A stretch of DNA of 64,000 bases. Source: Brenneria roseae subsp. roseae (GTDB lineage Bacteria > Pseudomonadota > Gammaproteobacteria > Enterobacterales > Enterobacteriaceae). The notes beneath the pieces were generated by a model. The model saw only the letters and a program-made list of their open reading frames with translations, made no database searches and was not told the origin of the DNA. Of the stretch, positions 1-18,661 are shown piece after piece; the first letter of the stretch is position 1; the number at the start of each line of letters is the position of its first letter. The stretch covers positions 1 to 64,000 of the forward strand of contig NZ_KZ819037.1 in NCBI RefSeq assembly GCF_003115845.1, in the 5' to 3' direction. The position numbers and the translations under genes are program-made.

Positions 1-212
1 GCACTTACAGATATTCTTCCCCAAATTTGTGGGGATCCCTCAGCCTTTACGGGCGAAACCCAAAAACGGGTCGAGTAACACGGTCAGCGTACCTGCTGGC
101 TTGCAAGATGCCGGGTATGACACGCTCCCTTCTTTTATCGATAGCCAACCTCAAATTGTTATCTTCATCACGCATAAATGTTTTTATTTGGTTAACTATT
201 GGCTGCATTGTT
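1..212. other. intergenic region upstream of glpD
   Basis: No convincing gene is seen. A short perfect hairpin (CCCC, eight-base loop, GGGG) lies at 19-34. Bases 96-121 resemble the end of an ERIC-type repeat (tract resembling TTGCAAGATGCCGGGTATGA). An open frame in phase with glpD runs back to base 29 but has no ribosome binding site and encodes nothing resembling the family N-terminus. In E. coli the divergent neighbour would be glpEGR, which would lie off the left edge here. Confidence 0.5.
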
Positions 213-248
213 TGTTTTCGATTACTATAATGCTCGAAATCGAACATT
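213..248 (+). promoter_or_regulatory. glpD promoter with GlpR operators
   Basis: A perfect TATAAT -10 box sits at 226-231. A weak -35 candidate (CTGCAT, 203-208) lies 17 bases upstream. Bases 229-248 match all 20 positions of the degenerate palindromic GlpR operator consensus recalled from E. coli (WATKYTCGWW and its complement). A second, weaker operator-like sequence spans about 213-232 and overlaps the -10 box. This predicts repression by GlpR relieved by glycerol-3-phosphate. The match is seen directly; the regulation is inferred from E. coli. Confidence 0.8.
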
Positions 249-277
249 TTGTTTATTTTGACGGTGGAGGAAGAAAC

Positions 278-1777
278 GTGGAAACCAAAGATCTGATCGT
301 GATCGGCGGCGGTATTAACGGTGCAGGCATCGCCGCAGATGCGGCCGGGCGCGGATTATCTGTCCTGCTGCTGGAAGCGCAGGATCTGGCCTGCGCCACT
401 TCCTCCGCCAGTTCCAAATTGATTCATGGCGGCTTGCGCTACCTTGAGCACTATGAATTCAGACTGGTCAGCGAGGCGCTTTCCGAACGTGAAACGCTGC
501 TCAAAATGGCTCCCCATATCATCTTCCCGATGCGCTTTCGTCTCCCGCACCAGCCGCACCTGCGTCCGGCCTGGATGATCCGCATCGGTCTGTTTATGTA
601 TGACAATATTGGTAAGCGCGTCAGTCTGCCCGCCAGTAAGGGATTGAAATTCGGCGCTGAATCCGTGCTGAAGCCGGAGCTGACTCGTGGATTCGAATAT
701 TCGGACTGCTGGGTTGACGATGCGCGTCTGGTGGTACTGAACGCGCAGGAAGTGGCAAAACGCGGTGGTGAAGTTCGCACACGTACCAACGTGGTCAGCG
801 CACGCCGCGAACAGGGCCTGTGGATCGTGGAAGCCGTTGACTCACTCACGGGCGAGACGTTCACCTGGCGCGCCAAAGGTCTGGTTAACGCCACCGGTCC
901 ATGGGTGAAGCAGTTCTTTGATGACGGTTTGCGGTTAAAATCACCGTACGGCATTCGCCTCATCAAAGGCAGCCACATCGTGGTGCCAAGAGTACACACC
1001 CAGCCTCAGGCTTATATTCTGCAAAACAAAGATCACCGTATCGTATTTGTGATCCCGTGGCAGGATGAGTTCTCGATCATCGGCACCACCGATGTGGAAT
1101 ATCATGGCGATGCGCATAATGTGAAGATCGATGATAACGAAGTCAGCTATCTGCTGGACGTGTATAACGATCACTTCAAGAAGCAACTTACTCGTGAAGA
1201 TATCGTCTGGACCTATTCCGGTGTACGCCCGCTGTGTGATGATGAATCGGATTCGCCGCAGGCCATCACCCGTGATTACACGCTGTCGGTGGAAGATGAC
1301 GATGGTCAGGCGCCATTACTCTCCGTATTTGGCGGCAAGCTGACGACCTATCGCAAGCTGGCGGAGCATGCGCTGGATAAGCTGCAAAAATATTATCCTC
1401 AGGCTGGTAAAGCCTGGACCCAGAATGCGGTGTTGCCAGGCGGGGATATCGCCGGTACACGTGAAGATTACGCCGCCGCGCTGCGTCGCCGCTTTAACAT
1501 ACCGGAAGCGTTGGCGCGCCGTTATAGCCGCACATACGGCTCAAACAGTGAACTGATTCTTGCGAATACCAAGGGGATCAGCGAATTGGGAGAGAATTTT
1601 GGTCATGACCTGTATGAAGCGGAATTGCGTTATCTGGTGGAAAAAGAGTGGGCCATTACGCTGGATGATGTCATTTGGCGTCGGACAAAACTGGGTATGC
1701 TGCTGAGCGAAGCGCAGAAACAGCGCATCAGCGCGTGGTTGGATGCCTACCGCCACCAGGTGGCTAAAGTCAGCTAA
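278..1777 (+). CDS. glpD: aerobic glycerol-3-phosphate dehydrogenase
   Basis: GlpD is an FAD-dependent peripheral membrane enzyme that oxidises sn-glycerol-3-phosphate to dihydroxyacetone phosphate and passes electrons to ubiquinone. The GTG start at 278 follows a GGAGG at 266-270 and gives 499 residues, close to the E. coli length of 501. The N-terminal FAD dinucleotide fold is clear (IGGGINGAG near residues 9-17), followed by the family SSKLIHGGLRYLEHYEF segment and a conserved C-terminal domain. GlpR operators overlap its promoter. It is separated from the glycogen genes by the ydh cluster, whereas in E. coli glpD lies close to glgP. Identification is very secure. Confidence 0.97.
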   Translation: METKDLIVIGGGINGAGIAADAAGRGLSVLLLEAQDLACATSSASSKLIHGGLRYLEHYEFRLVSEALSERETLLKMAPHIIFPMRFRLPHQPHLRPAWMIRIGLFMYDNIGKRVSLPASKGLKFGAESVLKPELTRGFEYSDCWVDDARLVVLNAQEVAKRGGEVRTRTNVVSARREQGLWIVEAVDSLTGETFTWRAKGLVNATGPWVKQFFDDGLRLKSPYGIRLIKGSHIVVPRVHTQPQAYILQNKDHRIVFVIPWQDEFSIIGTTDVEYHGDAHNVKIDDNEVSYLLDVYNDHFKKQLTREDIVWTYSGVRPLCDDESDSPQAITRDYTLSVEDDDGQAPLLSVFGGKLTTYRKLAEHALDKLQKYYPQAGKAWTQNAVLPGGDIAGTREDYAAALRRRFNIPEALARRYSRTYGSNSELILANTKGISELGENFGHDLYEAELRYLVEKEWAITLDDVIWRRTKLGMLLSEAQKQRISAWLDAYRHQVAKVS

Positions 1778-1820
1778 CCCTGCTGACACGACATTAGGCA
1801 ATTTGCCATTAATAATCCCT

Positions 1821-1851
1821 TCCCGACCTCCCTCTTGTCAGGGGGAGGAAC
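1821..1851. repeat. GC-rich palindromic repeat, left copy
   Basis: The tract begins TCCCGACCTCCC and continues into AGGGGGAGG, forming an imperfect hairpin just after glpD. A related tract in opposite orientation lies at 8841-8878, just before the end of glgP, so the two copies bracket the ydh genes. It may act as a terminator-like structure or be a dispersed palindromic repeat. Confidence 0.5.
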
Positions 1852-2233
1852 AACTCACCCATGAAAGATACTGGACCTGCTCCCTCTCCACCGGTGAAGG
1901 GAAAGCAAAAATTGACCGCGTCATGCAGTCCATTATTCTTTATCTTGAAAGATTCTTCATGAATTGGGGTTTATATCATTTTTCATCGGCTATCTTATAT
2001 TCGGTGATTCCGGTATAAATCAAAAAAGACAAATATCGCTGGCCTGATATTTTCTCATTTTAAAAAATAATCTCGCCAAAATAATAATCACCATTAACGG
2101 CTTTTGATTTTACTGCACCATATTCATTGAGTTATCTGTATTTATACTTTAGAGAGCCTCATTAATATTAAGTAATAAAGGTCTCAAATAATAATAAGAA
2201 TCAATAACATTAAAAATATTCAAAATAAATATT

Positions 2234-2255
2234 TTCTATGACGTTAATCACAGAA
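2234..2255. promoter_or_regulatory. possible CRP site upstream of ydhY
   Basis: TATGA, six bases, TCACA matches the CRP core TGTGA-N6-TCACA at nine of ten positions with correct spacing. It is about 450 bases from ydhY, so its target is uncertain. No clear FNR palindrome was found, although E. coli ydhY is FNR-activated. Confidence 0.35.
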
Positions 2256-2505
2256 TAAAAAACATGATAACCACATCATCAATATGGCTAACCAGAAACA
2301 CTGCTATGTCCTATAGTAAAAAACATGCACTATTGCGAATGCGTTTCATTATTCGCGTAGTAAGCGGATCATTATATGTACCGCCAGATATCAAGTCTTG
2401 CGGAAAAATGACAACGGCATGATAAGCGTAATGAAGGTAAACATCGCCACCGTTATTTATTTTATTATATAACGGTATTTGACGCGGTCAGTCAATTATT
2501 TTTTT

Positions 2506-2630
2506 ATATTCTAAATAATTCGAGTTGCAGGAAGGCGGCAAGTGAAGGAATCCCGATGAGCTTACTCAGGTAAGTGATTCGGGTGACTGAACGCGGCCAA
2601 CGCACATGCAACTTGAAGTATGACGAATAT
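2506..2630. repeat. ERIC (IRU) repetitive element
   Basis: The tract has the hallmarks of the roughly 127-bp enterobacterial repetitive intergenic consensus. It has the outer ends CGAGTTGCAGGAAGGCGGCA and CATGCAACTTGAAGTATGAC. It also has the central GAGCTTAC and GTAAGTGA core used by ERIC-PCR primers. It lies just upstream of ydhY and would be transcribed in the leader if the promoter at about 2479-2508 is used. Confidence 0.85.
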
Positions 2631-2698
2631 CGCGCTTGTCGTTACCAATTCTGCTATGGGTGCACTTCCATACTCATTTTGCGGAGGATGAGAATTAA

Positions 2699-3328
2699 AT
2701 GCCTAATCAGGTTGAACGTCCTTTACTGAATCTGGGGTTAACAAGGCTGGAATTCCTGCGTATTTCTGGCAAAGGTTTGGCAGGAATCACCATTGCGCCG
2801 GGATTACTGTCTTTGTTGGGCTGTAAGCAGGAAGAGATCAATAGCGGCACCGTAGGGCTCACCACCACTCCCAAAGGCGTACTGGTGACGAAAAGAGCCC
2901 GCTGTACGGGCTGTCACCGCTGCGAAACGGCCTGTACGACCTACAACGACGGCAGCGTCGGCTCCTTCTTTTCACGGGTCAAAATCCACCGTCATTTTTA
3001 TTACGGTGATAAGGGTATCGGCACCGGCGGCGGGCTGTATGGCGATCTTAATTTTACTACCGACACCTGCCGGCAATGTAAAGATCCCGAATGTATGAAA
3101 GTCTGCCCAATAAAAGTTATTACCTACAACGAGGAGCGTGGCTGTATTACGGTTGACGCCAACCGTTGTATTGGTTGCGCTGCCTGTACCACCGCCTGCC
3201 CGTGGATGATGGCAACGGTAAATCCACAGATCAAAAAATCCGGCAAGTGTAATTTATGTGGCGAATGCGCTACCGCTTGTCCTACAGGTGCATTAAGTAT
3301 CATCGACTGGAAGGATATTACGGTCTGA
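2699..3328 (+). CDS. ydhY: YdhY-like four-cluster ferredoxin protein
   Basis: First gene of the ydh operon, 209 residues, almost the length of E. coli YdhY (208), which it resembles throughout. Four cysteine clusters of the CxxCxxCxxxC type are visible (RCTGCHRC, TCRQCKDPEC, RCIGCAAC and KCNLCGEC), enough for four [4Fe-4S] centres, so it probably carries electrons for YdhV. Residues 14-45 form a hydrophobic N-terminal segment with TRLEFLR, a Tat-like motif lacking the second arginine, and end in LSLLGC, which resembles a lipobox. The ATG at 2699 follows a GGAGG at 2683-2687. The E. coli operon is induced anaerobically by FNR; the reaction served is unknown. Confidence 0.92.
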   Translation: MPNQVERPLLNLGLTRLEFLRISGKGLAGITIAPGLLSLLGCKQEEINSGTVGLTTTPKGVLVTKRARCTGCHRCETACTTYNDGSVGSFFSRVKIHRHFYYGDKGIGTGGGLYGDLNFTTDTCRQCKDPECMKVCPIKVITYNEERGCITVDANRCIGCAACTTACPWMMATVNPQIKKSGKCNLCGECATACPTGALSIIDWKDITV

Positions 3329-3386
3329 GTAACCGGTTTTATTCCTGCCTATTTCTCATGATGACGCTTCACACTCAGGAAAATAA

Positions 3387-5492
<2,106 letters not shown>

Positions 5493-5514
5493 CCGTATTG
5501 CAGGGATATTGATT

Positions 5515-6204
5515 ATGACAACGACATCATCACTCACGTCTGCGGCGCCCGCGTCAGAAACACCCCCGGACGGCCAGCCCGACTTAAGCAAAAGACGGCT
5601 GCTGTTGCCGTTATCCGCACAGGCGGAAGCCGCGGATGATGGCGTTACCGCAGACGATACGCCTGAACCCAAAGCGCCGTTTTTGGTCGTCGCAGATTAT
5701 ATCCGCCAGTGCTCGGCGGCAGGTGAACTGGTGAGTACTCGGAGCTTTCAGGCTCCGCCTTATTCACTGGAGCCTGAAACCATCGGGCAGCTGTTTGCCC
5801 AAATCGGCGCCAGCGACGAATGCGCAGACATCCTCGCCATCGGCAATGGCGAGGAACAGTATCACTACTCGGATCAAAGCATGAGCCACAACTATGCGCG
5901 GATTTTACTGTTTACTCACGAGCAGGATACCTGCAAGACCATTGCAGATACCGTGCGGTTCGAGTGCCAGACCTATCCGCGCCCTTACAAAGTGCAGATG
6001 CTGACGCTGCCGCCGTATTCATTCGATCAGGAGAAGATTGATTGCGCGCTCCGCTTTCTCGGGCAGTCCGATAGCTTTAAGGATATTCGCACCGTCATGG
6101 CGTCCAACGGCGAACCCTATCTGTTCAGTGAACGCTTTATGAGTTACGGCAAGGCAAAGGGGCTATGTGAATGGATCGAGGTTGAACAGTATGAAAACCC
6201 GTAA
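5515..6204 (+). CDS. ydhW: YdhW-like protein of unknown function
   Basis: A 229-residue protein in the position of E. coli ydhW. The ATG at 5515 follows CAGGGA; a TTG two codons upstream is less likely. The first 50 or so residues are low-complexity and rich in Pro, Ala, Asp and Ser. The remainder contains two similar halves with the recurring pattern PPYSxxxExIxxxLxxxxxSDxxxDI followed by E-P/Q-Y (near residues 82-125 and 163-205), suggesting an internal duplication. It lacks metal-binding motifs and a signal peptide. A role as accessory or maturation factor for YdhV is only an inference from the operon. Confidence 0.8.
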   Translation: MTTTSSLTSAAPASETPPDGQPDLSKRRLLLPLSAQAEAADDGVTADDTPEPKAPFLVVADYIRQCSAAGELVSTRSFQAPPYSLEPETIGQLFAQIGASDECADILAIGNGEEQYHYSDQSMSHNYARILLFTHEQDTCKTIADTVRFECQTYPRPYKVQMLTLPPYSFDQEKIDCALRFLGQSDSFKDIRTVMASNGEPYLFSERFMSYGKAKGLCEWIEVEQYENP

Positions 6205-6363
6205 TCCTTCTCCCGCCCACGCGCGACAAACCAGCAATCCATACCGTGCGGCGGTGAGTCAACCCATTGGAGAGCAGATGAAAAAGCAAGCTTTGACACC
6301 TCGGATGCAATCTACTTTGAACCGTACATTTTCCAACAGCGCATTTTCTGGGAGGCAAGGAAG

Positions 6364-7035
6364 ATGACATGCTCACGCCGTCAGTTTGTCCTCGGCATGG
6401 GATCGGTGATTTTCTTCAGCGCACCACTCTTCTCCGCCCTCGGCGGGACAGATAAAAACAGGCTGGTGCGCTACGCCATGATCCACGACGAAGTGCTGTG
6501 CAACGGTTGCAGTATCTGTACCGTTGCCTGCCATAAAGTCAATAAGGTCCCCATTGGCGCGGCCCGAATGAGTATCGCGCATATCGCGATGACCCCACCG
6601 GAGCAGGGAAATATTTATCACTTTTTCCGCCATGCCTGCCAGCAATGCGAGGATGCGCCGTGCATTGACGTTTGCCCGACCGGCGCATCTTACCTGGATG
6701 AAAGCAATGGTATTGTTCGGGTGGATAAAGTGAAATGTATCGGCTGTAGCTACTGCATTTCCGCCTGCCCGTATCAGGTGCGCTACCTTAATCCCACCAC
6801 CCGCGTGGCCGACAAATGCGATTTTTGTCTGGAATCACGGCTGCAAAAAGGCTTCCCGCCAATCTGCGTCAGCGCCTGTCCGCAGGACGCGCTCATCTTT
6901 GGTCCTGAAGACAGCGAACCGGTGCAAACCTGGCTGAAAACGCATGAGTACTACCAATACCGACTGCCTGATGTCGGTAAGCCACATATTTATCGCCGCC
7001 CCGGTCCACATGACGTCGAAAAGGTGAATGTATGA
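6364..7035 (+). CDS. ydhX: YdhX-like Tat-exported ferredoxin-type subunit
   Basis: A 223-residue iron-sulfur protein that starts with a Tat signal (SRRQFVLGMG) followed by a hydrophobic stretch, so its Fe-S domain is expected in the periplasm. Four cysteine groups are visible (CNGCSIC, CQQCEDAPC, CIGCSYC, and CDFC with a later CVSAC), the pattern of DmsB/NrfC-type four-cluster electron carriers. The ATG at 6364 follows GGAGG at 6351-6355. The stop overlaps the start of ydhU (ATGA), implying translational coupling with the membrane cytochrome. It would link the quinone pool through YdhU to the rest of the ydh chain. Confidence 0.92.
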   Translation: MTCSRRQFVLGMGSVIFFSAPLFSALGGTDKNRLVRYAMIHDEVLCNGCSICTVACHKVNKVPIGAARMSIAHIAMTPPEQGNIYHFFRHACQQCEDAPCIDVCPTGASYLDESNGIVRVDKVKCIGCSYCISACPYQVRYLNPTTRVADKCDFCLESRLQKGFPPICVSACPQDALIFGPEDSEPVQTWLKTHEYYQYRLPDVGKPHIYRRPGPHDVEKVNV

Positions 7036-7817
7036 ATATCATGCCCAACGCGGAGCTGTTTCAGGCTCAGCTGTACCAATATGTCTATATCTATACGCCT
7101 GATTTCTGGCCGGTGTGGCTGATTCTGGCCGGTATCCTGCTTGCCGGAATGCTGGGCGTATTAACGCTGCACGGGCTGCTGCGCTACAAATTCGCGCCAT
7201 CGCTTCAGGCGGCACAGGAAGAAAAAGTATATCTCTACTCGCGGGCCATCCGCTTATGGCACTGGAGCAACGCCCTGTTGTTTATTCTGTTGCTCGCCAG
7301 TGGCTTGTTAAACCACTTCGCCATCGGTTCGGTAAAAGACCGGGTGACGCTGGTGGCAATGCACGAGCTGTGCGGATATCTGCTGTTGATCAGTTGGGTG
7401 GCGTTTGTACTGATTAACGCCTTCGGCGGCAATGGGCATCATTATCTCATCGATCGTAAAAGTTGGGGACAGCGCGCCTTTCTGCAAGTCCGCTTTTATC
7501 TGTATGGCATTATCAAAGGGGAGGATCACCCTTTTCCGGCGACGCCGCGAGCCAAGTTTAACCCGTTACAGCAGGTCGCCTATCTTGGCGTGATGTATGC
7601 GCTGTTACCCGCGCTGCTGGCGACAGGGCTGTTCCTGAGTAATCCGCAGTGGATCCCGGCTGATTTTGTGCAGCTCAAAGCCTGGCTGTTACCACTGCAT
7701 CTGGTTTTGGCGGTCGCCAGTCTGTTCTTTATTGGCGGGCATGTTTATCTGTGTACGACCGGGAGAACGCCAACCCAGACGTTCCGCTGCATGATTGATG
7801 GTTATCATCGCCACTAA
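7032..7817 (+). CDS. ydhU: YdhU-like membrane cytochrome b subunit
   Basis: A 261-residue protein with about five hydrophobic membrane segments, resembling the thiosulfate-reductase cytochrome b (PhsC/YdhU) family. Candidate haem-ligand histidines lie in RLWHWSN, LLNHFA, AMHELCG, LPLHLVL and IGGHVYL. It probably exchanges electrons between menaquinol or ubiquinol and the Fe-S subunit YdhX at the periplasmic face. Its start overlaps the ydhX stop by four bases. Identification by operon position and sequence similarity is firm; the direction of electron flow is not known. Confidence 0.92.
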   Translation: MNIMPNAELFQAQLYQYVYIYTPDFWPVWLILAGILLAGMLGVLTLHGLLRYKFAPSLQAAQEEKVYLYSRAIRLWHWSNALLFILLLASGLLNHFAIGSVKDRVTLVAMHELCGYLLLISWVAFVLINAFGGNGHHYLIDRKSWGQRAFLQVRFYLYGIIKGEDHPFPATPRAKFNPLQQVAYLGVMYALLPALLATGLFLSNPQWIPADFVQLKAWLLPLHLVLAVASLFFIGGHVYLCTTGRTPTQTFRCMIDGYHRH

Positions 7818-7867
7818 GGCGCAACACTCCCGGACGAGAACAAGACGTTACGCGGGCATGGCAAACA

Positions 7868-8800
7868 ATGAAGAAAATGACCAGGCAGCAATTACATTCA
7901 TTACAGGTCAGTCCGCAGATTTACCGCTGGTTCCTACGCCATTTCCCGCAAGGCGGACATTATCAGGATATCCATCATGCTCTGATGCGCGATGGCCACA
8001 TCGAATGGCTGGAAACGCTGGTGGAATACAGCTATGCACGCGGTTTTGATACGCATCAGTTTATTGCACAGGAAATGCGCACCACTCAGGCGATGGTGAC
8101 ACAGTTAACGACCGGCGGTGATGGTATCGTTCAGATCAAACCTCGCTGCCGCATCGCAAAATCAGCGCCAGAGATCCCCTATACAATGCAATTGGCCGTC
8201 AGTGATTCTGCGTTGGATATCGGCTGCACCGGGTTGCAAAGTCAGGTCGCCCTGTCAGGCGCGTGCAATTTCATTGGTAATTCGGGTGACAACACCAGCA
8301 TCGCCAGCGTTGGCTATGCCTGCCAGCTCGTCAGCGCCGGTTTTGCGGTCAGGATCAGCAACACCGGCCAGCATAGCCGGATTGGCAGTCTGGGAGGACG
8401 GGCCCGCATCAGCAACAGCGGAAACTCGGCGAAAATCAGCAGCGCCGGTTGTGGAACCCACATCACCAATAGCGGCATGCGCAGCTATATCAGCAGTGCC
8501 GGTGACTCAACACGCATCGCCAACGCCGGTGATATGTGCAGGATCGGGATATCAGGCCATGACAATCGCCTCATCAATGGCGGCGACGATGTTTCAGTCA
8601 ACATCACGGGAGAAAACGTCGTACTCCTCTCCTCGGGTAAGGTGAAAACGCTGATACTGGGGAAAGGGGGATGCGCGGCATTAACCTACCACGACGGCAC
8701 GCGTACCCGGTTCCTGGTGGTTTATGAAGGGGAAAACGGCATCATGGCGGGCGTAAAATACCGGATTAATAACGCGTTTGAACTGGAGGTATGCCAATAG
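7868..8800 (+). CDS. ydhT: YdhT-like protein with tandem nonapeptide repeats
   Basis: Last gene of the ydh operon, 310 residues (E. coli YdhT is about 270 as recalled). Residues 1-100 form a mixed region without known motifs. From about residue 109 to 261 the protein consists of roughly 17 tandem nine-residue units, with an aliphatic residue at position 1 and Gly at position 5 (for example ISNTGQHSR, IGSLGGRAR, ISNSGNSAK, ISSAGDSTR). This regularity predicts a beta-solenoid with two units per turn. The last 40 residues break the pattern. No strong ribosome binding site precedes 7868; an ATG at 7877 is an alternative start. No signal peptide is seen. Function unknown. Confidence 0.85.
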   Translation: MKKMTRQQLHSLQVSPQIYRWFLRHFPQGGHYQDIHHALMRDGHIEWLETLVEYSYARGFDTHQFIAQEMRTTQAMVTQLTTGGDGIVQIKPRCRIAKSAPEIPYTMQLAVSDSALDIGCTGLQSQVALSGACNFIGNSGDNTSIASVGYACQLVSAGFAVRISNTGQHSRIGSLGGRARISNSGNSAKISSAGCGTHITNSGMRSYISSAGDSTRIANAGDMCRIGISGHDNRLINGGDDVSVNITGENVVLLSSGKVKTLILGKGGCAALTYHDGTRTRFLVVYEGENGIMAGVKYRINNAFELEVCQ

Positions 8801-8897
8801 CCGCAGCGCCTGCCGGCCGCTATCATCGCCTCTGCGCACTCGTTCCCCCAACCCCCCCTGTTACAGGGAGGTCGGGAGGCGCTAAACATAACGGCGC
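8801..8897. repeat. short spacer with inverted GC-rich repeat, right copy
   Basis: The convergent spacer between ydhT and glgP contains at 8841-8878 the reverse-complement relative of the tract at 1821-1851. Both share a core of CCCGACCTCCCTG-type sequence. It may act as a bidirectional terminator. Confidence 0.5.
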
Positions 8898-11345
8898 TTA
8901 CAGCCGTATCGGTTTGATATTCCAGATTTCACTGGCGTATTCGCTGATGGTGCGATCGGAAGAAAAATAGCCCATATTGGCGATGTTATGCGCCGTACAA
9001 CGCGCCCATTCGTCCTCATTACGGTATAAATCATCCACCCGGTCCTGCGTATCGACATAGCTGCGATAGTCGGCCAGCAGTTGGTAGTAATCACCGAAGT
9101 TCACCAGCGAATCAAACAAATCGCTGTAGCGTTTGGGCTCATTGGGACTGAATAAGCCCGTCGCAATCTGCGTTAATACCCGATGTAACTCCTCGTCCTT
9201 TTCATAGTACTGCCGCGGGTTATAGCCGTTTTTACGCAGCTCCTCCACCTCATCGGCGGTATTGCCGAAAATGAACATATTCTCATCCCCGACATGCTCC
9301 AGCATTTCAACGTTGGCTCCATCCAGCGTACCAATGGTCAATGCGCCGTTTAACGCAAACTTCATGTTGCTGGTGCCTGATGCCTCCGTCCCCGCCAGCG
9401 AGATCTGCTCAGAGAGATCGGCGGCAGGAATAATGATCTGCGCCAGACTCACGCCATAATTCGGGATAAAGACGACTTTCAACCGATCGTGCAGCGCGGG
9501 ATCGTTATTGATCACCTTCGCAACATCATTGATCAGGTTGATAATGTGTTTCGCCATGTAATAGGCGGACGCCGCTTTGCCGGCAAAAATCATCACGCGA
9601 GGCACACGATCAACCTCTGGATCATCCTTGATGCGGTTATACAGCGTAATAATGTGCAACACATTGAGTAGCTGCCGCTTGTATTCGTGAATGCGTTTGA
9701 TTTGTACATCGAACAACGCTTCCGGATTGACGACAATATTCAGGTTTTCCGCGATGTAGGCCGCCAGCCGTTCTTTGTTCTCCAGCTTGACCTTACGGAT
9801 TTTCTGCACGAACGCAGGGTAATCAATATGCTGCTGAAGATCGCTCAGCTGGCTCAAATCGGTACGCCAGTTGTGTCCGATGGTGTCGTCCAACAGTTTT
9901 GACAGCGGACGGTTTGCCAGCGCCAGCCAACGGCGCGGCGTCACGCCATTAGTCTTGTTGCAAAAGCGATTGGGAAAGAGTTTGGCGAAGTCGGCGAACA
10001 GCGATTGCACCATTAAATCCGAGTGCAGCTCCGACACCCCGTTCACCTTATGGCTGGCAACCACCGCCAGCCAGGCCATGCGTACCTTGCGTCCATTGTT
10101 TTCATCAATGATGGAGACTCTGGACAGCAGGTTATTATCACTTGGGTATTGCTTCTGTACGTATTCCAGGAAGTTCTCGTTAATCTCGAAAATCAATTGC
10201 AGATGGCGCGGCAGAATCTTGCCCAGCATGTCTACCGGCCAGGTTTCCAGCGCTTCCTGCATCAGCGTATGGTTGGTATAGGAGAAAACCTTGGTCACCA
10301 CCGTCCACGCATCCTGCCATTTGAATTTATGTTCATCAATCAACAACCGCATCAGTTCCGGAATGGCGAGTACCGGATGTGTATCGTTCAGATGGATGGC
10401 AAATTTTTCCGCCAGATTATTGTAGGTTTTGTGCATCAACCAGTGGCGATTGAGAATATCCTGCACCGTGGCGGAAACCAGAAAATATTCCTGCCGCAGA
10501 CGCAACTCGCGCCCGGAATAGGTTGAATCATCGGGATACAATACGCGCGACACGTTTTCCGAGTGGTTTTTATCTTCCACCGCCGCAAAGTAGTCACCCT
10601 GATTAAATTTACCCAGATTGATTTCATTACTGGCCTGCGCGCCCCATAGGCGTAGCGTATTCGTCGCATCCGTATCAAAACCGGGAATGATCTGATCGTA
10701 AGCGCAGGCGATAACTTCTTCGGTTTCCAGCCAGCGGATTTTTGTCCCTTCCTGCTGGAGACGTCCGCCGAACCGCACTTTATAACGTGTACTATGGCGC
10801 GGAAACTCCCACGCGTTGCCGTATTCCAACCAGTAATCCGGTGATTCGGCCTGTTTTCCGTCTACGATGTTTTGCTTGAACATGCCATATTCATAGCGAA
10901 TACCGTAACCACGCCCCGGCAACGCCATGGTTGCCAGCGAATCCAGAAAACAGGCGGCCAATCGCCCCAGACCGCCGTTTCCCAAACCGGGATCCGTCTC
11001 TTCCTGTAGCAAATCGTCCAGTTCTAATCCCATGTCATCCAGCGCGGCTTTCAGATCGTCATACAGTCCCATCGCCAGCAGCGCATTGGATAGCGTGCGT
11101 CCCAGCAAAAACTCCATAGAAAGGTAGTAAACCTGACGAACATCCTGCGAAAGCTGCGCCCGATTGGAGCGCAGCCAGCGTTCCACCATACGGTCACGCA
11201 CCGCCAGCAGCGTGGCGTTCAGCCAATCATGCTGGGTGGCGATAGAAGGATCCTTACCCACGGAAAACATGAGTTTGTAGGCGATAGAATGTTTCAGCGC
11301 TGCCACACTGAGCGTTGGTGAAGTATAGATAAACGGAGAGTTCAT
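8898..11345 (-). CDS. glgP: glycogen phosphorylase
   Basis: Removes glucose-1-phosphate from the non-reducing ends of glycogen using pyridoxal phosphate. The 815 residues equal the E. coli GlgP length, and identity is high along the whole protein. The PLP-lysine signature [14 protein letters not shown] is present near residue 660, and the substrate loop [13 protein letters not shown] near residue 125. The start at 11345 is chosen because a GGGA lies nine bases upstream; in-frame ATG and longer options at 11354 and above would run into glgA. Last gene of the glgBXCAP operon, 22 bases after the glgA stop. Confidence 0.97.
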
Positions 11346-11367
11346 AATATTCATTCCCAAGTGAGTG

Positions 11368-12801
11368 TTACCACAAGCGTTGATATAGCGTTCGGTAAGC
11401 CTGCGCGGCCACCGTCCAACTAAAGTCCATTGCCATCGCCTGACGCTGGACATAGCGCCACAGCGTTGGACGTGACCACAACACAAACACACGACGAATC
11501 GCTCTGGAAAGCGATCCCACATTACAATCGTTAAATACAAACCCACTCGCCAGCCCATCCGCCAGATTTTCCAGCGAACAGTCCGATACCGTATCGGCCA
11601 GTCCGCCCGTCCGACGAACCAGCGGCAACGTGCCGTATTTCAGCCCGTAAAGCTGCGTCAGGCCGCAGGGCTCAAACCGGCTCGGCACCATGATGACGTC
11701 TGCGCCACCGATAATGCGGTGTGAAAACGCCTCATGGTAGCCAATTTGTACGCCAACCTGCCCGTGATACTTTGCGGCGGCGGTCAGAAACCCTTCCTGC
11801 AAATCCGCATCTCCCGCCCCCAGCACCACCAGTTGCCCGCCCTGATCCAACAAATCCGGTACTGCACTCAATGCAATATCCAGACCTTTTTGACTGGTCA
11901 GGCGACTGACAATGGCAAACACCGGCACCTTGTCATTAACCTTCAGTCCCATCGCCGTTTGCAGATGCCGCTTGTTTTCCGCCTTGTTTGCCAGCACATC
12001 ACGATTGTAGTGGCTGGTCAATAAATGATCGTGCGCGGGATTCCAGATAGCATCGTCCACACCGTTGAGAATGCCGGACAAACGCCCTTCTTCTTCACGG
12101 GTTTGCAATAAACCTTCCATGCCGTAACCATAGGCCGGCAGAGTAATTTCATGGGCATAAGTCGGGCTGACCGTAGTGATATGATCGGCATAAAACAGCC
12201 CGGCTTTAAGGTAGGAAATCTGCCCATAGAATTCCAGGCCGTAAACCTGGAAGAACTCCGGCGGCAGATGAAGCTCCGGCATATGGCGAGCGTCGAACAG
12301 CCCCTGATAGGCCAGATTATGCACGGTAAATACCGACTTGGCCGGACGGTTACGGGCCGCCAGATAAGCGCAGGTCAGCCCCGCGTGCCAGTCATGGGCA
12401 TGCACAATATCCGGCCGCCAGTAATGATCCAGCCCGCAGGCCATCTCACAGCCGATCCAGCCCAGCAGAGCAAAACGCAAATAGTTGTCCGCATAGGCAT
12501 ACAGCGCAGGATCATGATAGGGGCTACCCGCACGGGCATACAAATTCGGCGCATCAATCAGGTAAATGCCGACCCCGTTAAAATGGCCGAACAGCAGCGT
12601 GACACGCCCGGCGAAAGTATCCAATTCACGCACAATCTGGGTATCCGTAATCCCTTTTTTCAGATCAGGAAAAGCCGGCAACAGCACCCGGGCATCCATT
12701 CCCGCGGAAATCTGTGCCGCTGGCAGCGCACCGGCGACATCAGCAAGCCCGCCGGTTTTCAATAATGGAAATAACTCTGAACAAACGTGTAATACCCGCA
12801 T
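11368..12801 (-). CDS. glgA: glycogen synthase (ADP-glucose)
   Basis: Transfers glucose from ADP-glucose to the growing alpha-1,4-glucan. A GT5-family enzyme of 477 residues, the E. coli length. The ADP-glucose binding motif KTGGL lies at residues 15-19, and the C-terminal nucleotide-binding region [18 protein letters not shown] is intact. Two adjacent ATG codons occur at 12804 and 12801; GGAG spacing of five bases favours 12801. It lies 27 bases after glgC and is presumably co-transcribed. Confidence 0.97.
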
Positions 12802-12828
12802 CATTACTCCTGTTTGCCACGATGGCTG

Positions 12829-14106
12829 TTACAGTTTTTCCAGCATCGTCCGCGTCACCAGCACAATTCCTTCTTCCGAACGATAAAAACGGCGGCTGTC
12901 TTCTTCCGCATTTTCGCCAATAATCGTGCCCTCCGGGAGCTGGCAGGCACGGTCGATGATACAACGACGCAGACGACAGGACCGCCCGACGGTGACATCC
13001 GGCAGCAACACCGCTGAATCTATACTGCAAAACGAATTTACCCGGACGCGAGGAAACAGCACCGAATGCGTCACCACCGAACCGGAAACTATGCAGCCGC
13101 CTGAAACCAGCGAGTTCATCGTCATTCCGTGGCTGCCGGAATGGTCCTGCACAAATTTTGCCGGCGGTAACGACTCGATCGCCGAGCGAATCGGCCAGTT
13201 ACGGTCATACATATCCAGTTCCGGCGTCACGGAGGCCAAATCAAGATTTGCCTGCCAATACGCTGCCAGCGTACCGACATCCCGCCAGTAGGGATGATCA
13301 TTCTCACCCGACGTCACGCAGGAAAGGGTGAAAGGATGTGCCCAGGCTGAACGCTGCGCGACGATTTTCGGGATCAGGTCCTGACCAAAATCATGATTGG
13401 ACTCCGTCACGCGGAGATCGTCTTCCAGCAAGCGATAAAGATAGTCCGCATTAAAAACATAGATCCCCATGCTCGCCAGCGCCATATCCGGATTATCCGG
13501 CATCGATATCGGTTTCTCCGGTTTTTCCGCGAAATCGAGGATACGGAGCTGATTATCGACGCTCATGACGCCAAAGGCGCTGGCCTCTTGCAACGGCACG
13601 GGGAGACAGGCCACGGTGCATTCCGACCCTTTTTCGACGTGGTCGATCAGCATGCGCGAATAGTCCATCTTGTAGATATGATCGCCGGCCAGTATCACCA
13701 CGTATTCCGCCTGGTAACGGCGGATAATATCCAGGTTCTGACATACCGCATCGGCGGTGCCGCGATACCAGTGATCGGTGGAGTTACGCTGCTGCGCGGG
13801 CAGCAGGTCGATAAACTCATTCATTTCCACGTTCAGGAAAGACCAGCCGCGCTGAATGTGTTGCACCAGCGTATGCGACTGATACTGAGTAATCACCCCA
13901 ATGCGCCGGATACCGGAATTGAGGCAATTGGACAAGGCAAAATCAATAATGCGGAATTTGCCGCCGAAATGTACGGCTGGCTTGGCACGCTTTGCCGTCA
14001 GCTCTTTTAAACGTGTTCCCCGGCCTCCCGCCAGAATTAACGCCACAGACTTAAGCGGCAATTGTCTCGCCAGCATCAGAGGATCATTTTTGTCGTTACT
14101 CACCAT
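12829..14106 (-). CDS. glgC: glucose-1-phosphate adenylyltransferase
   Basis: Makes ADP-glucose from ATP and glucose-1-phosphate, the committed and allosterically controlled step of bacterial glycogen synthesis. 425 residues against 431 in E. coli; the C-terminus is a few residues shorter. The nucleotidyltransferase loop [14 protein letters not shown] and the downstream [18 protein letters not shown] segment are clear, followed by a left-handed beta-helix C-terminal domain. The ATG at 14106 follows GGAG with seven bases spacing. A longer frame to 14166 overlaps the glgX stop and lacks family similarity. Allosteric lysine and arginine residues of the E. coli N-terminal region look conserved. 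Confidence 0.97.
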
Positions 14107-14123
14107 GGCTAACTCCTTCTTAT

Positions 14124-16094
14124 TTATCTTGTAAGGATACAGACCGCCTGTGCATTCCCTTGCCATACCCCATTGCTGATCCGGTACGCCTTCTCATCAA
14201 ACGGTGGCGAAACTTTCCACTGTCCTGTCGGCAGGGTGAAACTCCCCTCGTGTACACTGGCGTTAATCACCAATAGCCAGCGCTCGGAAAGCAAAATTTG
14301 TAACTGGCGCTCACCCTGTTCCCATTGCTGCGGGGTTAAGGGTTGCCCGTTGATATCCAGCCATTGAACGGCGTTATCGCCCTCCTGCCACCATCCTTCC
14401 TGCTGCAACGCCGGTATTGCGCGACGCAGATGAATTAATCCGGCGGTAAACCGGATCAGGTCCTGGTCGGCATTATCCCAATGCAACCAGGTCAGTTCGT
14501 TATCCTGACAATAGGCATTGTTGTTACCCTGCTGGCTATGCCCCCGTTCATCCCCCGCCAGCAGCATCGGGGTTCCTTGTGATAACAACAGCGTGGCCAG
14601 CAGTGCCCGCTGACTGGCATGGCGGCGCTGTTGTGTCTCTTCATCGGCATCCAGCCCTTCCGTTCCGTGGTTATTGCTGAAATTGCTGTCGGTGCCGTCG
14701 CGGTTACCTTCACCGTTCGCATCATTGTGTTTATGGTTAAAGCAGACCAGATCGCGCAGCGTAAAACCGTCGTGCGCGGTCAGTTTGTTGATAGAAGCGT
14801 AAGGCAGACGGTCATGGTGCTGGAAAATATCGCTGGAGGCGGCAAAACGACGGGCGAAATCGCCGAGGGAAACATCGCCATGCAGCCAGAAGCGTCGCAT
14901 ATCGTCACGATAACGATCGCTCCATTCGGCGAACGGCGCAGGGAACTGTCCCAGTTGATAGCCGCCGTTGCCAATGTCCCACGGTTCGGCAATCAGCTTG
15001 CACCCTTGCAGACGGCGGTCATTTTTCATGGCGGTCAATAGCGGTGCGGAGGCGGTAAAATCGGGCGTGCGCCCGAGCACCGTGGCCAGATCGAAACGGA
15101 AGCCGTCGATATGGCACACTTCGCGCCAGAAATACAGGCAATCCATCACCCAGTCCATGACCGCAGGGTGATTGAGGCGCAATACGTTACCGCACCCGGT
15201 CCAATTACGGTATTCGCCTTGCTCGGTCAGCCAGTAGTAGCTGCGATTATCAATACCGCGCAGAGAAAGCGTCGGCCCTTCTACATCCAGTTCGGCGCTG
15301 TGGTTGAACACCACATCGAGAATCACTTCAATGCCGGCGTTATGCAGGGCTTTGACCGCATCCCGAAATTCATTCAGCGCATCTTCACCGGCCGCCAGAC
15401 CGTTATCCACGGCGAACGGCAACAGCACGTTGTAGCCCCAATAGTTGCGCAATCCCATTTGCTGTAACCGTGGTTCATCCGCGTGTTGCTGAACAGGCAA
15501 TAACTCCAGTGCGGTCACGCCCAGCATTTTCAGATAGTCGATGATGACCGGATGGCCCAGCGCGGCGTAGCTGCCGCGAATGGCTTGCGGAATATCAGGG
15601 TGCAGTTGCGTCAGGCCGCGCACGTGCGCCTCATAAATCACCGTCTGGCTCCACGGCGTCTGCGGGTGGCGGTCGTCCCGCCAATCGTAATCCTCGGCGA
15701 TGACGACACACTTCGCCATCACGTCAGCGCTATCCCGTTCATCACGCTGATCGAGTCCGCCGTGCAGGCAGTCGTCATCGACCACCCAGCCATCCAGCAA
15801 GCGGGCGCAGGGATCAAGCAGCAGTTTGTGTGGATTGAAGCGCAGCCCCCGCGACGGTTCAAACGGCCCCGACACCCGGAAGCCATAGCGCAGACCGGGC
15901 TTCGCGCCAGGCAGATAGCCATGCCAGATATCCCCGCTGCGATGAGTCAACGCCAGCCGCCGTTCCTGTTGCCGTTCATCAAACAGGCATAATTCGACCC
16001 GCTCGGCATCGGCCGAAAACAGGGCGAAATTAACACCCTCGCCGTCAAAACTCGCACCAAGTGGGCAGGCTGCGCCCGCTTGCAAGACCGTCAT
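14124..16094 (-). CDS. glgX: glycogen debranching enzyme
   Basis: A GH13 isoamylase-type enzyme that hydrolyses alpha-1,6 branches left after phosphorylase trimming. 656 residues, E. coli has 657. The N-terminal CBM48 domain is followed by a catalytic barrel with the conserved regions [21 protein letters not shown] (nucleophile Asp), IAEPWDIG (acid/base Glu) and [10 protein letters not shown]. The ATG is only three bases beyond the glgB stop, and its AAGGAGG ribosome binding site lies inside the end of glgB, so translation of the two is coupled. Confidence 0.97.
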
Positions 16095-16097
16095 TTA

Positions 16098-18275
16098 TTA
16101 CGCCTCCTTCACCAGATACAGCGTTGCCAACGGAGGAATCGTCAGCACCAGTGACTGAGGGCGTTGATGGCTACCGATATTTTCGCTATCCACCGGCCCT
16201 TCGTTGCCCAGATTGCTGCCGTGGTAGTAGCCCGAATCAGTATTAATGATTTCCCGCCAGCGGCCGGGCTGGTTAATCCCGATGCGGTAAGCGTAGCGCG
16301 GTACGGGCGTGAAATTGCTGACCACCAGCACCTCATTACCCTGTTCATCGCGCCGCACGAAGGCGAAAACGGAATTTTCCCGGTCATCCACCACGAGCCA
16401 TTCAAATCCCTGTGACTGAAAATCAAGCTGATACAGCGGCGGCTGCTGGCGATAGCAGTGGTTGAGATCGCGCACCAGATGCTGAACACCGCGATGCCAG
16501 CCTTCCGGCTCATCCAGTAAGTGCCAGTCCAGACTGGCGTCGTAATTCCATTCGCGTCCCTGAGCAAACTCACAGCCCATAAACAGCAGTTTCTTGCCTG
16601 GATAAGCCCACATAAAACCGTAATAGGCGCGCAGGTTGGCGAACTTTTGCCAGGCGTCGCCGGGCATTCTGTCAAGCAGCGATCGCTTGCCGTGCACCAC
16701 TTCGTCATGGGAGATCGGCAGAACAAAATTTTCGCTGTAGGCATACAGCATGCCGAACGTCAGCAGATCGTGGTGATATTTGCGGTGAATCGGATCGTGC
16801 TGCATATAAGACAGGGTGTCGTGCATCCAGCCCATATTCCATTTGTAGTGGAACCCCAGACCGTTGCAGTCCGGCGGCAGCGTAACCCCCGGATAGTCCG
16901 TCGATTCTTCCGCAATGGTCACCGCGCTGGAATAGGCATGGCCCAGCATCTGGTTGGTGTAACGCAGGAAAGCAATCGCTTCGAGGTTCTCTTTGCCGCC
17001 GTAGTAGTTAGGCACCCACTCCCCTTCGTTACGGCTGTAGTCGCGGTAAATCATCGATGCAACCGCATCCACCCGGAGTCCGTCGATACCATAGTGCTCC
17101 ATCCAGAACAGGGCGTTGCCCGCCAGATAGTTACGCACTTCATGACGCCCGTAGTTATAGATCAGGGTATTCCAGTCCTGATGATAGCCCTCGCGAGGAT
17201 CGGCGTATTCATACAGCGCCGTACCGTCGAACTGGGCCAGACCGTATTCGTCGCCGGGGAAATGTCCCGGCACCCAATCCAGCAGCACATTGATACCCGC
17301 CTCGTGAAAGGCATCGATAAACCGCCTGAACTCCTGCGGCGTACCAAAGCGGCGCGTTGGCGCGTACAGCCCAAGCGGCTGATAGCCCCAACTGCCGTCA
17401 AACGGGTGTTCATTGATGGGCATCAGCTCAATATGGGTAAAGCCCATCTCTTTAACGTAGGCAATCAGTTGAGTAGCCAGATCCTGATAGCTGAGCCAGA
17501 AATTGTTATCCGTATGCCGCCGCCAGGACCCCAGATGCACTTCATAGATGGAAATCGGGGCCTGGAGGCTATTGGCCTGACGGCGGGCTTCGCTCACCGG
17601 GACTTTTTCCGGCAGCGGGGTAATCAGAGAGGCGGTATCAGGCCGCATTTGCGCTTCAAATGCGTAAGGGTCGGCTTTCAGGCGGACGCTGCCATGACAG
17701 TCAATCATCTCGTATTTATACAACTGTCCCTGGGTCACTCCGGGCAAAAACAGTTCCCAGATGCCATTCTCTTTTCTTAAACGCATGGGATGACGACGCC
17801 CATCCCAGAAATTGAACTGCCCCACCACCGATACCCGCTGCGCATTGGGCGCCCAGACGGCAAAACGCGTCCCTTCCACCCCGTCCAGCGTTTCCAGATG
17901 GGCCCCTAAGCGCTCATAGGGACGTAAGTGCGTGCCTTCGGCCAGCAGCCAGATATCCATATCCTGTAACAAGGGGCCAAAACGGTAGGGGTCTTCAATC
18001 AGATAGGTTTCTTGCTGCCAGGTTACCGCGAGCTGATAGTGAAAGGTTTTTTTTCTACGCGGCAGCACGCCACAAAAAAAGCCACGCGCATCAATCTGTT
18101 TCAATTCAATAACTTTTCGGCCGTTCGTCGCATCGACAAGCCATACCTCCTGTGCATCCGGTAATAGTGCCCTGACTTCTATACCTTTAGCGGTTTGATG
18201 CATTCCCAGCAGCGAGAAGGGATCGGCATAATGTCCATCAATAAGTGCGTTAATCGCATCGGAAAATTCTGGCAT
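16098..18275 (-). CDS. glgB: 1,4-alpha-glucan branching enzyme
   Basis: Creates alpha-1,6 branches in glycogen. GH13 enzyme with an N-terminal region (CBM48-like domains), then catalytic motifs [28 protein letters not shown] and [11 protein letters not shown]. First gene of glgBXCAP. Three in-frame ATGs exist at 18275, 18284 and 18299, giving 725, 728 and 733 residues (E. coli 728). AGAGG is nine bases from 18275 but abuts 18284, so 18275 is preferred on spacing. The long open frame antisense to this gene (16521-17780) is a codon-usage shadow. Confidence 0.96.
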
Positions 18276-18661
18276 GGTATCCATCCTCTGATTAACCATT
18301 TGAATTAAATAAATATGTTATATAAATAAGTCATCACTCCTCATTTGTATTTTTTTGCATGCGCTGAACGGATGGCATACAGAATAAATTCAATTAAAAT
18401 AAAGATTTATTAGCAAACTAATGAATTATGCATACTTTTAAAAAATATTTAATAGTATGAAAGAGTTCACTAACATGCCGCCTGTAACCCAGCTTAGTCA
18501 AAGAACCTACAAATATCTGAGAACTAGTTAAATTTTTCTGTTTATATTTATATGAATAAATTATGACTATATATTTTTAGTACCTTTTGTTTAAAGATCG
18601 GTTCGTGTACCAAAGAAAAGCAGTACAATCTGCTGGCTTGAGCATTACGAGGTCATTAGCC
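18276..18661. other. divergent AT-rich intergenic region (glgB / btsS)
   Basis: About 385 bases that must hold the glg operon promoter (minus strand) and the btsS promoter (plus strand). It is strongly AT-rich between 18300 and 18590. No specific operator was recognised. An open frame continuous with btsS starts at 18587, but the first family-like residues begin at 18662. Confidence 0.5.

What the first reader, a model, noticed from the sequence alone, without database searches (positions are those of the whole stretch)
8192..8652. YdhT is built from about 17 tandem nonapeptide repeats, a predicted beta-solenoid
Residues of about 109-261 follow a strict nine-residue period with an aliphatic residue at position 1, small or polar residues at 2-4 and Gly at position 5. 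Two units (18 residues) would make one turn, as in RTX beta-rolls, but the Asp ligands of calcium-binding RTX repeats are absent. Such a solenoid in a redox operon is unusual; it could be a scaffold or a chaperone surface for YdhV or YdhW.
Basis: partly seen in the sequence, partly recalled or inferred. Interest (0 to 1): 0.6.

Follow-up and report, generated by a model that had tools for sequence, protein, structure and literature searches.

The report
YdhT: phage-derived nine-residue beta-solenoid
YdhT, a protein of unknown function at the end of a bacterial molybdenum-enzyme operon, really is built from sixteen tandem nine-residue repeats that are predicted to coil into a beta-solenoid, and both of its end domains show that it descends from a little-studied family of bacteriophage early-gene proteins, so its function may be approached through phage biology.

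Summary
Residues 118-257 of YdhT (window 7868-8800, 310 aa) hold 16 unbroken nonapeptides, all with aliphatic at position 1 and Gly at position 5; a 17th unit (109-117) lacks the Gly. None of 20,000 shuffles matches it. AlphaFold2 on a 22-sequence alignment gives one short strand every nine residues (pLDDT about 64-94 over the array, 82-94 from residue 161), a five-helix N-terminal domain and a C-terminal beta cap. RTX and pentapeptide motifs are absent.

Phage copies lie among repressors, N-type antiterminators, exonucleases and annealing proteins, with about 3-39 units, near-identical in longer arrays. Operon copies form one clade nested among phage proteins, with degenerate units (27% identity against about 58%), constant length across E. 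coli and dN/dS about 0.03-0.13. The best reading is one capture of a phage early protein into the YdhYVWXUT operon of Enterobacterales, kept as an assembly or docking factor. Repeats and origin are well supported, the fold is predicted, the function is inferred and untested. I found no paper describing the link.

The parts
7868..8800 (+). ydhT, 310 aa, last gene of the ydh operon, single copy in the genome
   Evidence: NF007410 E 6e-109; only one match above noise in its own genome
7868..8113 (+). N-terminal helical domain (residues 1-82), with the phage-type W-F-x3-F-P-Q-G-G motif
   Evidence: AF2 five helices; 36% identity over 80 aa to a phage protein, E 4e-20 in the single comparison; no convincing PDB match by profile or fold
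8114..8218 (+). linker (residues 83-117), partly disordered, with the first degenerate repeat 109-117
   Evidence: pLDDT under 50 at 93-113; conservation 0.32 against 0.57 in the solenoid
8219..8638 (+). 16 nonapeptide units, predicted beta-solenoid (Gly 122, 131 ... 257)
8639..8797 (+). C-terminal beta cap (residues 258-310), with LGKGGCAALTYHDGTRTRF and EGENGIMAGVKYR
   Evidence: pLDDT about 89-94; 59% identity over 46 aa to a phage protein, E 1e-20 in the single comparison
2699..3328 (+). ydhY, ferredoxin-like subunit
   Evidence: NF007382 E 1e-115
3390..5492 (+). ydhV, AOR-family catalytic subunit
   Evidence: NF007354, 1276 bits; Pfam AFOR_N and AFOR_C
5509..6204 (+). ydhW, unknown function
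   Evidence: NF007411 E 2e-73; no Pfam match
6364..7035 (+). ydhX, NrfC-like Fe-S protein with a twin-arginine leader
   Evidence: TIGR03149 E 2e-69, below its cut-off; CSRRQFVLGMG seen in the translation
7032..7817 (+). ydhU (phsC-like), cytochrome b subunit
   Evidence: NF011582 E 1e-116

Best explanation
YdhT is a three-part protein, probably cytoplasmic: a small helical N-terminal domain, a narrow beta-solenoid of 16 nonapeptides (probably two per turn), and a beta cap. It descends from a phage early-region protein that was captured once into the ydhYVWXUT operon of Enterobacterales. After capture the repeat number settled and the units diverged, because specific outward turn residues came under selection. 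The most likely job is as an operon-specific assembly or docking factor: the solenoid is a rigid rod whose conserved turn residues (Y150, Q153, R178, R180, N186, R205, D222) hold a partner of the YdhV enzyme while it is assembled or joined to its Fe-S subunits. Shown: repeats, homology of both end domains to phage proteins, single clade, purifying selection. Predicted: the fold. Inferred: direction of transfer, location, partner and job.
For: Periodicity. Fold, pLDDT 78.8, pTM 0.71. Ten viral-structure matches at E <= 0.001; those that bear a name are phage proteins, one of them a DUF7666 protein. tblastn to Edwardsiella phage GF-2 over residues 3-306, E 2e-52, and 50 viral-contig relatives. 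N-domain and cap match phage proteins on their own. Phage copies sit near cI, N or an antirepressor in four of the five phage loci with annotation that were read (the Paracoccus phage copy follows helicase and primase genes), and neighbours in viral contigs are exonucleases, Mu Gam-like, RecT, repressors. Operon copies are one clade at 100/100, nested among phage proteins when rooted on distant phage proteins (100/99 for that split; inner order weak). Length constant in E. coli: 5,362 of 5,426 genomes cover at least 80%, and 59 of 60 sampled rows match over the full 813 bp. Whole-gene dN/dS 0.03-0.13. Units 27% alike in operon copies, 58% in phage copies (medians). YdhT and YdhW reach their cut-offs in the same 4 of 395 genomes.
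Against: No partner, activity or localisation has been tested here or found in print. Rooting depends on the choice of a distant phage clade. The turn size is not directly resolved, and odd repeat-number differences occur in phages. Synteny alone does not prove that YdhT works with its operon.
Confidence: 0.5

Rival explanations
1. YdhT keeps its old phage function (for example binding a host nuclease, DNA or a regulator) and only shares the FNR-controlled transcript with the enzyme; it is a passenger, not a partner.
For: Phage copies lie in the early operons with recombination and exonuclease genes, where host-takeover genes sit; a ydh-type enzyme can lack YdhT.
Against: Operon copies stay with ydhU or, in G666, with ydhW-ydhX without ydhU; they differ from phage copies in constant length within E. 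coli and in degenerate units. The solenoid is not acidic (charge about +2; window pI 8.8), which speaks against a DNA mimic.
Confidence: 0.2
2. The solenoid is itself a redox or cofactor subunit, as the beta-helical SufB/SufD scaffold and the GXGXG-type subunit FwdC of a tungsten enzyme are (precedents from general knowledge).
For: Position in an operon of metal-pterin and Fe-S proteins; precedents for beta-solenoids in such complexes.
Against: No Pfam match at E <= 1 for the window protein, so no GXGXG or Suf domain; solenoid Cys numbers vary from 1 to 7 in operon copies and no solenoid Cys is among the strongly conserved residues.
Confidence: 0.08
3. The direction was the reverse: phages picked the gene up from bacterial redox operons.
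For: Midpoint-rooted, the two groups simply lie on two sides of a long branch.
Against: Phage-type copies carry at least two kinds of N-terminal domain (YdhT-N, DUF7666) and come from many hosts; operon copies were found only in Enterobacterales, which is where they were looked for, and nest within phages when rooted.
Confidence: 0.1
4. It is an RTX calcium beta-roll, a pentapeptide-repeat protein or a collagen-like triple helix.
For: Nine-residue period as in RTX; a profile of the family hits collagen chains at E 1e-25 and a phage homologue is annotated collagen-like; very weak profile hits to an RTX-type lipase and CyaA.
Against: No GGxGxD and no pentapeptide motif; no Pfam match at E <= 1; Gly recurs every nine residues, not every three, so the collagen hits are a composition effect.
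Confidence: 0.02

Closest known systems
NCBIfam NF007410 (protein YdhT)
   Same: Whole protein, over cut-off; operon gene order as in E. coli
   Different: Window copy is 40 residues longer than E. coli's 270, mostly in the linker and first units
Phage early-region proteins such as Edwardsiella phage GF-2 ORF-55 and the viral-contig relatives L046-L072
   Same: Same three-part architecture: N-domain, nonapeptides, GENGI cap
   Different: Near-identical units in widely varying number, DNA-level tandem repeats (L047: 14.8 copies of 27 bp, 97% matches); phage early operon instead of a redox operon
PHROG phrog_4433 and Pfam DUF7666 proteins (for example Salmonella phage SEN22_35, annotated c-type lectin)
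   Same: Nonapeptide array and cap; window protein matches phrog_4433 over 126-306, E 5e-5
   Different: N-terminal domain is DUF7666, absent from YdhT
RTX beta-roll (Pfam HemolysinCabind)
   Same: Nine-residue unit, possibly two units per turn
   Different: No calcium-binding motif and no Pfam match

Membership tests
YdhT (NF007410) | Whole-protein score over the curated cut-off | tested here: met
   363.7 bits against 300, residues 4-309
YdhT (NF007410) | Last gene of a ydhYVWXUT operon | tested here: met
   All six genes in order in the window
Phage YdhT-like solenoid family | N-domain homologous without using the repeats | tested here: met
   36% over 80 aa
Phage YdhT-like solenoid family | Cap homologous without using the repeats | tested here: met
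   59% over 46 aa
Phage YdhT-like solenoid family | Lies in a phage or prophage early region | tested here: not met
   Window copy lies in the ydh operon between a glpD-like gene and the glg genes; hence a homologue or descendant, not a prophage gene
DUF7666 (PF24703) | DUF7666 domain over gathering score | tested here: not met
   No Pfam match at E <= 1
RTX repeats | GGxGxDxUx calcium motif | tested here: not met
   No GGxGxD in the protein; no Pfam match
Pentapeptide repeats | A(D/N)LXX motif or Pfam match | tested here: not met
   None
DUF3060 (PF11259) | Score over gathering | tested here: not met
   No match in the window protein; Proteus YdhT 19.2 against 23.1 bits, Paracoccus phage Shpa protein 24.8
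Beta-solenoid with 18 residues per turn | Two units per coil in coordinates | tested here: inconclusive
   Strand every nine residues; alternation only suggestive; model coordinates not available to me
System-specific chaperone or assembly factor | Binds apo-subunit, needed for maturation | not testable with these tools
   Needs bench work

The most novel reading that the evidence does not exclude
A phage early protein with a length-variable solenoid was domesticated once as a dedicated maturation or docking factor of a respiratory molybdenum/tungsten oxidoreductase, converting a fast-changing repeat array into a fixed molecular ruler with one conserved edge.
Probability: 0.3. Interest if true: 0.75.

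Novelty: new variant of a known kind. Interest (0 to 1): 0.5.

Why it matters
YdhT is in nearly every E. coli genome yet has no known function, and the enzyme it travels with (YdhV, bis-Mo-MPT cofactor) has no known substrate or physiological role (PMC13328260, PMC12096430). The phage link gives two systems in which to test one fold: a large family of early phage proteins of unknown function (phrog_4433, DUF7666 relatives), and a chromosomal copy under purifying selection. It also offers a comparison of the same solenoid with free and with fixed repeat number.

Tried and rejected
Collagen: the profile hits collagen in the PDB, but through Gly periodicity only. RTX and pentapeptide repeats: no motif, no Pfam match. 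DNA mimic: operon solenoids are slightly basic in the median. Parity of repeat number as a test of an 18-residue turn: counts are mixed, so not informative. PDB fold search with the whole model and with the N-domain: nothing at E <= 0.001. Literature: no paper found that connects YdhT with phages or describes its fold; the held library lacks most subscription papers. One printed ydhT interaction stands in a passage that otherwise names yhdT, so it is probably a slip for yhdT (PMC5120140).

Full report
Observation. The ORF at 7868-8800 is YdhT. From residue 118 to 257 every ninth residue is aliphatic and, four residues on, Gly: 16 of 16, with one weaker unit before. No shuffle of 20,000 reaches the observed period for any of three residue classes. 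TRF finds no DNA repeat in the window, so the period survives in the protein although it has decayed in the DNA.

Fold. With 22 aligned sequences AlphaFold2 gives mean pLDDT 78.8 and pTM 0.71: helices in 1-82, disorder at 93-113, one strand every nine residues from 117 to 255, and a beta cap at 259-308. Blocks of ten residues score 57-78 at the start of the array (111-160) and 82-94 from residue 161 on. The N-domain alone gives 82. No solved structure matches by sequence apart from compositional collagen hits and weak lipase and hemolysin hits, and none by fold at E <= 0.001. Predicted viral proteins do match. Evidence for two units per turn is suggestive only.

Relatives. tblastn against phages and plasmids finds a full-length homologue in Edwardsiella phage GF-2 beside the N gene, and partial ones in Komagataeibacter, Paracoccus, Pseudomonas and Salmonella phages and on Roseomonas and Paenibacillus plasmids. 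A profile scan of viral contigs gives 50 loci. Of the phage, viral-contig and plasmid loci classified, most of the untruncated ones carry the YdhT-type N-domain and others a DUF7666 domain, on the same kind of solenoid and cap (the class YdhT-N also counts one operon copy, L032). The homology does not rest on the repeats: N-domain 36%, cap 59%. Unit number runs from about 3 to 39 in phages; two viral proteins, L060 and L061, are the same except for 18 residues. In a published evolution experiment with Serratia symbiotica a gene annotated ydhT_1 (1413 nt) lost exactly 54 bp, that is 18 codons (PMC12505973); I did not verify that this gene is of the phage type.

Phage context. Neighbours are repressors, N-like and CII-like regulators, exonucleases, Mu Gam-like end protection and RecT-like annealing proteins. 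The Paracoccus phage copy follows helicase and primase genes. So the phage proteins are early-region proteins, not tail fibres; PHROG tail-fibre hits probably come from repeat composition (inference).

Operon clade. Thirty-one copies adjacent to ydhU form one clade at 100/100 that also holds L127, where ydhW and ydhX precede ydhT but ydhU is missing. Rooted on the most distant phage N-domains, operon copies nest among phage proteins; the deep split has 100/99, the order inside is weak. Operon copies hold about 14-21 units at 18-34% mean identity; phage copies with seven or more units show 50-77% (L117 is labelled phage there by mistake and is an operon copy). In E. coli 5,362 of 5,426 complete genomes cover at least 80% of ydhT, at 95-100% identity, with no length change in 59 of 60 sampled rows. 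Between genera the length does change. Whole-gene dN/dS is 0.03-0.13; in nearly all pairs the solenoid is as constrained as the N-domain or more so. Conserved non-Gly solenoid residues include Y150, Q153, R178, R180, N186, R205 and D222 (whose numbers are three lower).

Link to the enzyme. YdhT and YdhW reach their cut-offs in the same four of 395 order-wide genomes. One other family in the order (Shewanella-like by my guess) has ydhY-ydhV-ydhW in the two loci read, without ydhX, ydhU or ydhT beside them. So YdhT seems to have joined a pre-existing enzyme together with, or after, the YdhX/YdhU branch. FNR control of the operon in E. coli is known (PMC10845959). The function of the enzyme is unknown (PMC13328260).

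Mechanism. A rigid rod with conserved turns, a separate helical domain and no signal peptide seen suggests binding in the cytoplasm, not catalysis. I favour assembly or docking of the YdhV-YdhY-YdhX complex (about 0.35 for that step alone), above a retained phage function (0.2). Solenoid fold: about 0.93. Phage ancestry: about 0.85. These numbers are judgements, not computed.

Noticed in passing
L036 (CP025887.1, Escherichia phage 503046): A record called a phage genome carries ydhT next to ydhU as in the E. coli chromosome; probably host DNA in a phage record.
   Followed up: partly
L032 (NZ_OL790811.1) and other 4-5 Mb 'plasmid' records: Chromosome-sized records with ydhT are listed as plasmids, probably mislabelled chromosomes.
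   Followed up: no
window 1-18299: The ydh operon lies between a glpD-like gene and the glg genes here and in Brenneria L001, but between pykF/fumD and ydhS/ydhR in E. coli; base composition is not unusual. The operon has moved or was gained more than once.
   Followed up: partly
L127 (G666): ydh operon in which ydhT follows ydhX directly; ydhU is missing and YdhT is on a long branch.
   Followed up: partly
L027, L031: Phage homologues are annotated 'collagen-like' and 'c-type lectin', which look wrong.
   Followed up: yes
L045-L094 repeat arrays: Within phage arrays variation is concentrated in the residues just after the Gly (often D, N, Y, V or H followed by a second variable residue) while the rest of the unit is nearly constant; cause not studied.
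   Followed up: no
PMC12505973, clone LT-05: A laboratory-evolved Serratia symbiotica clone lost 54 bp (18 codons) in a gene annotated ydhT_1.
   Followed up: no
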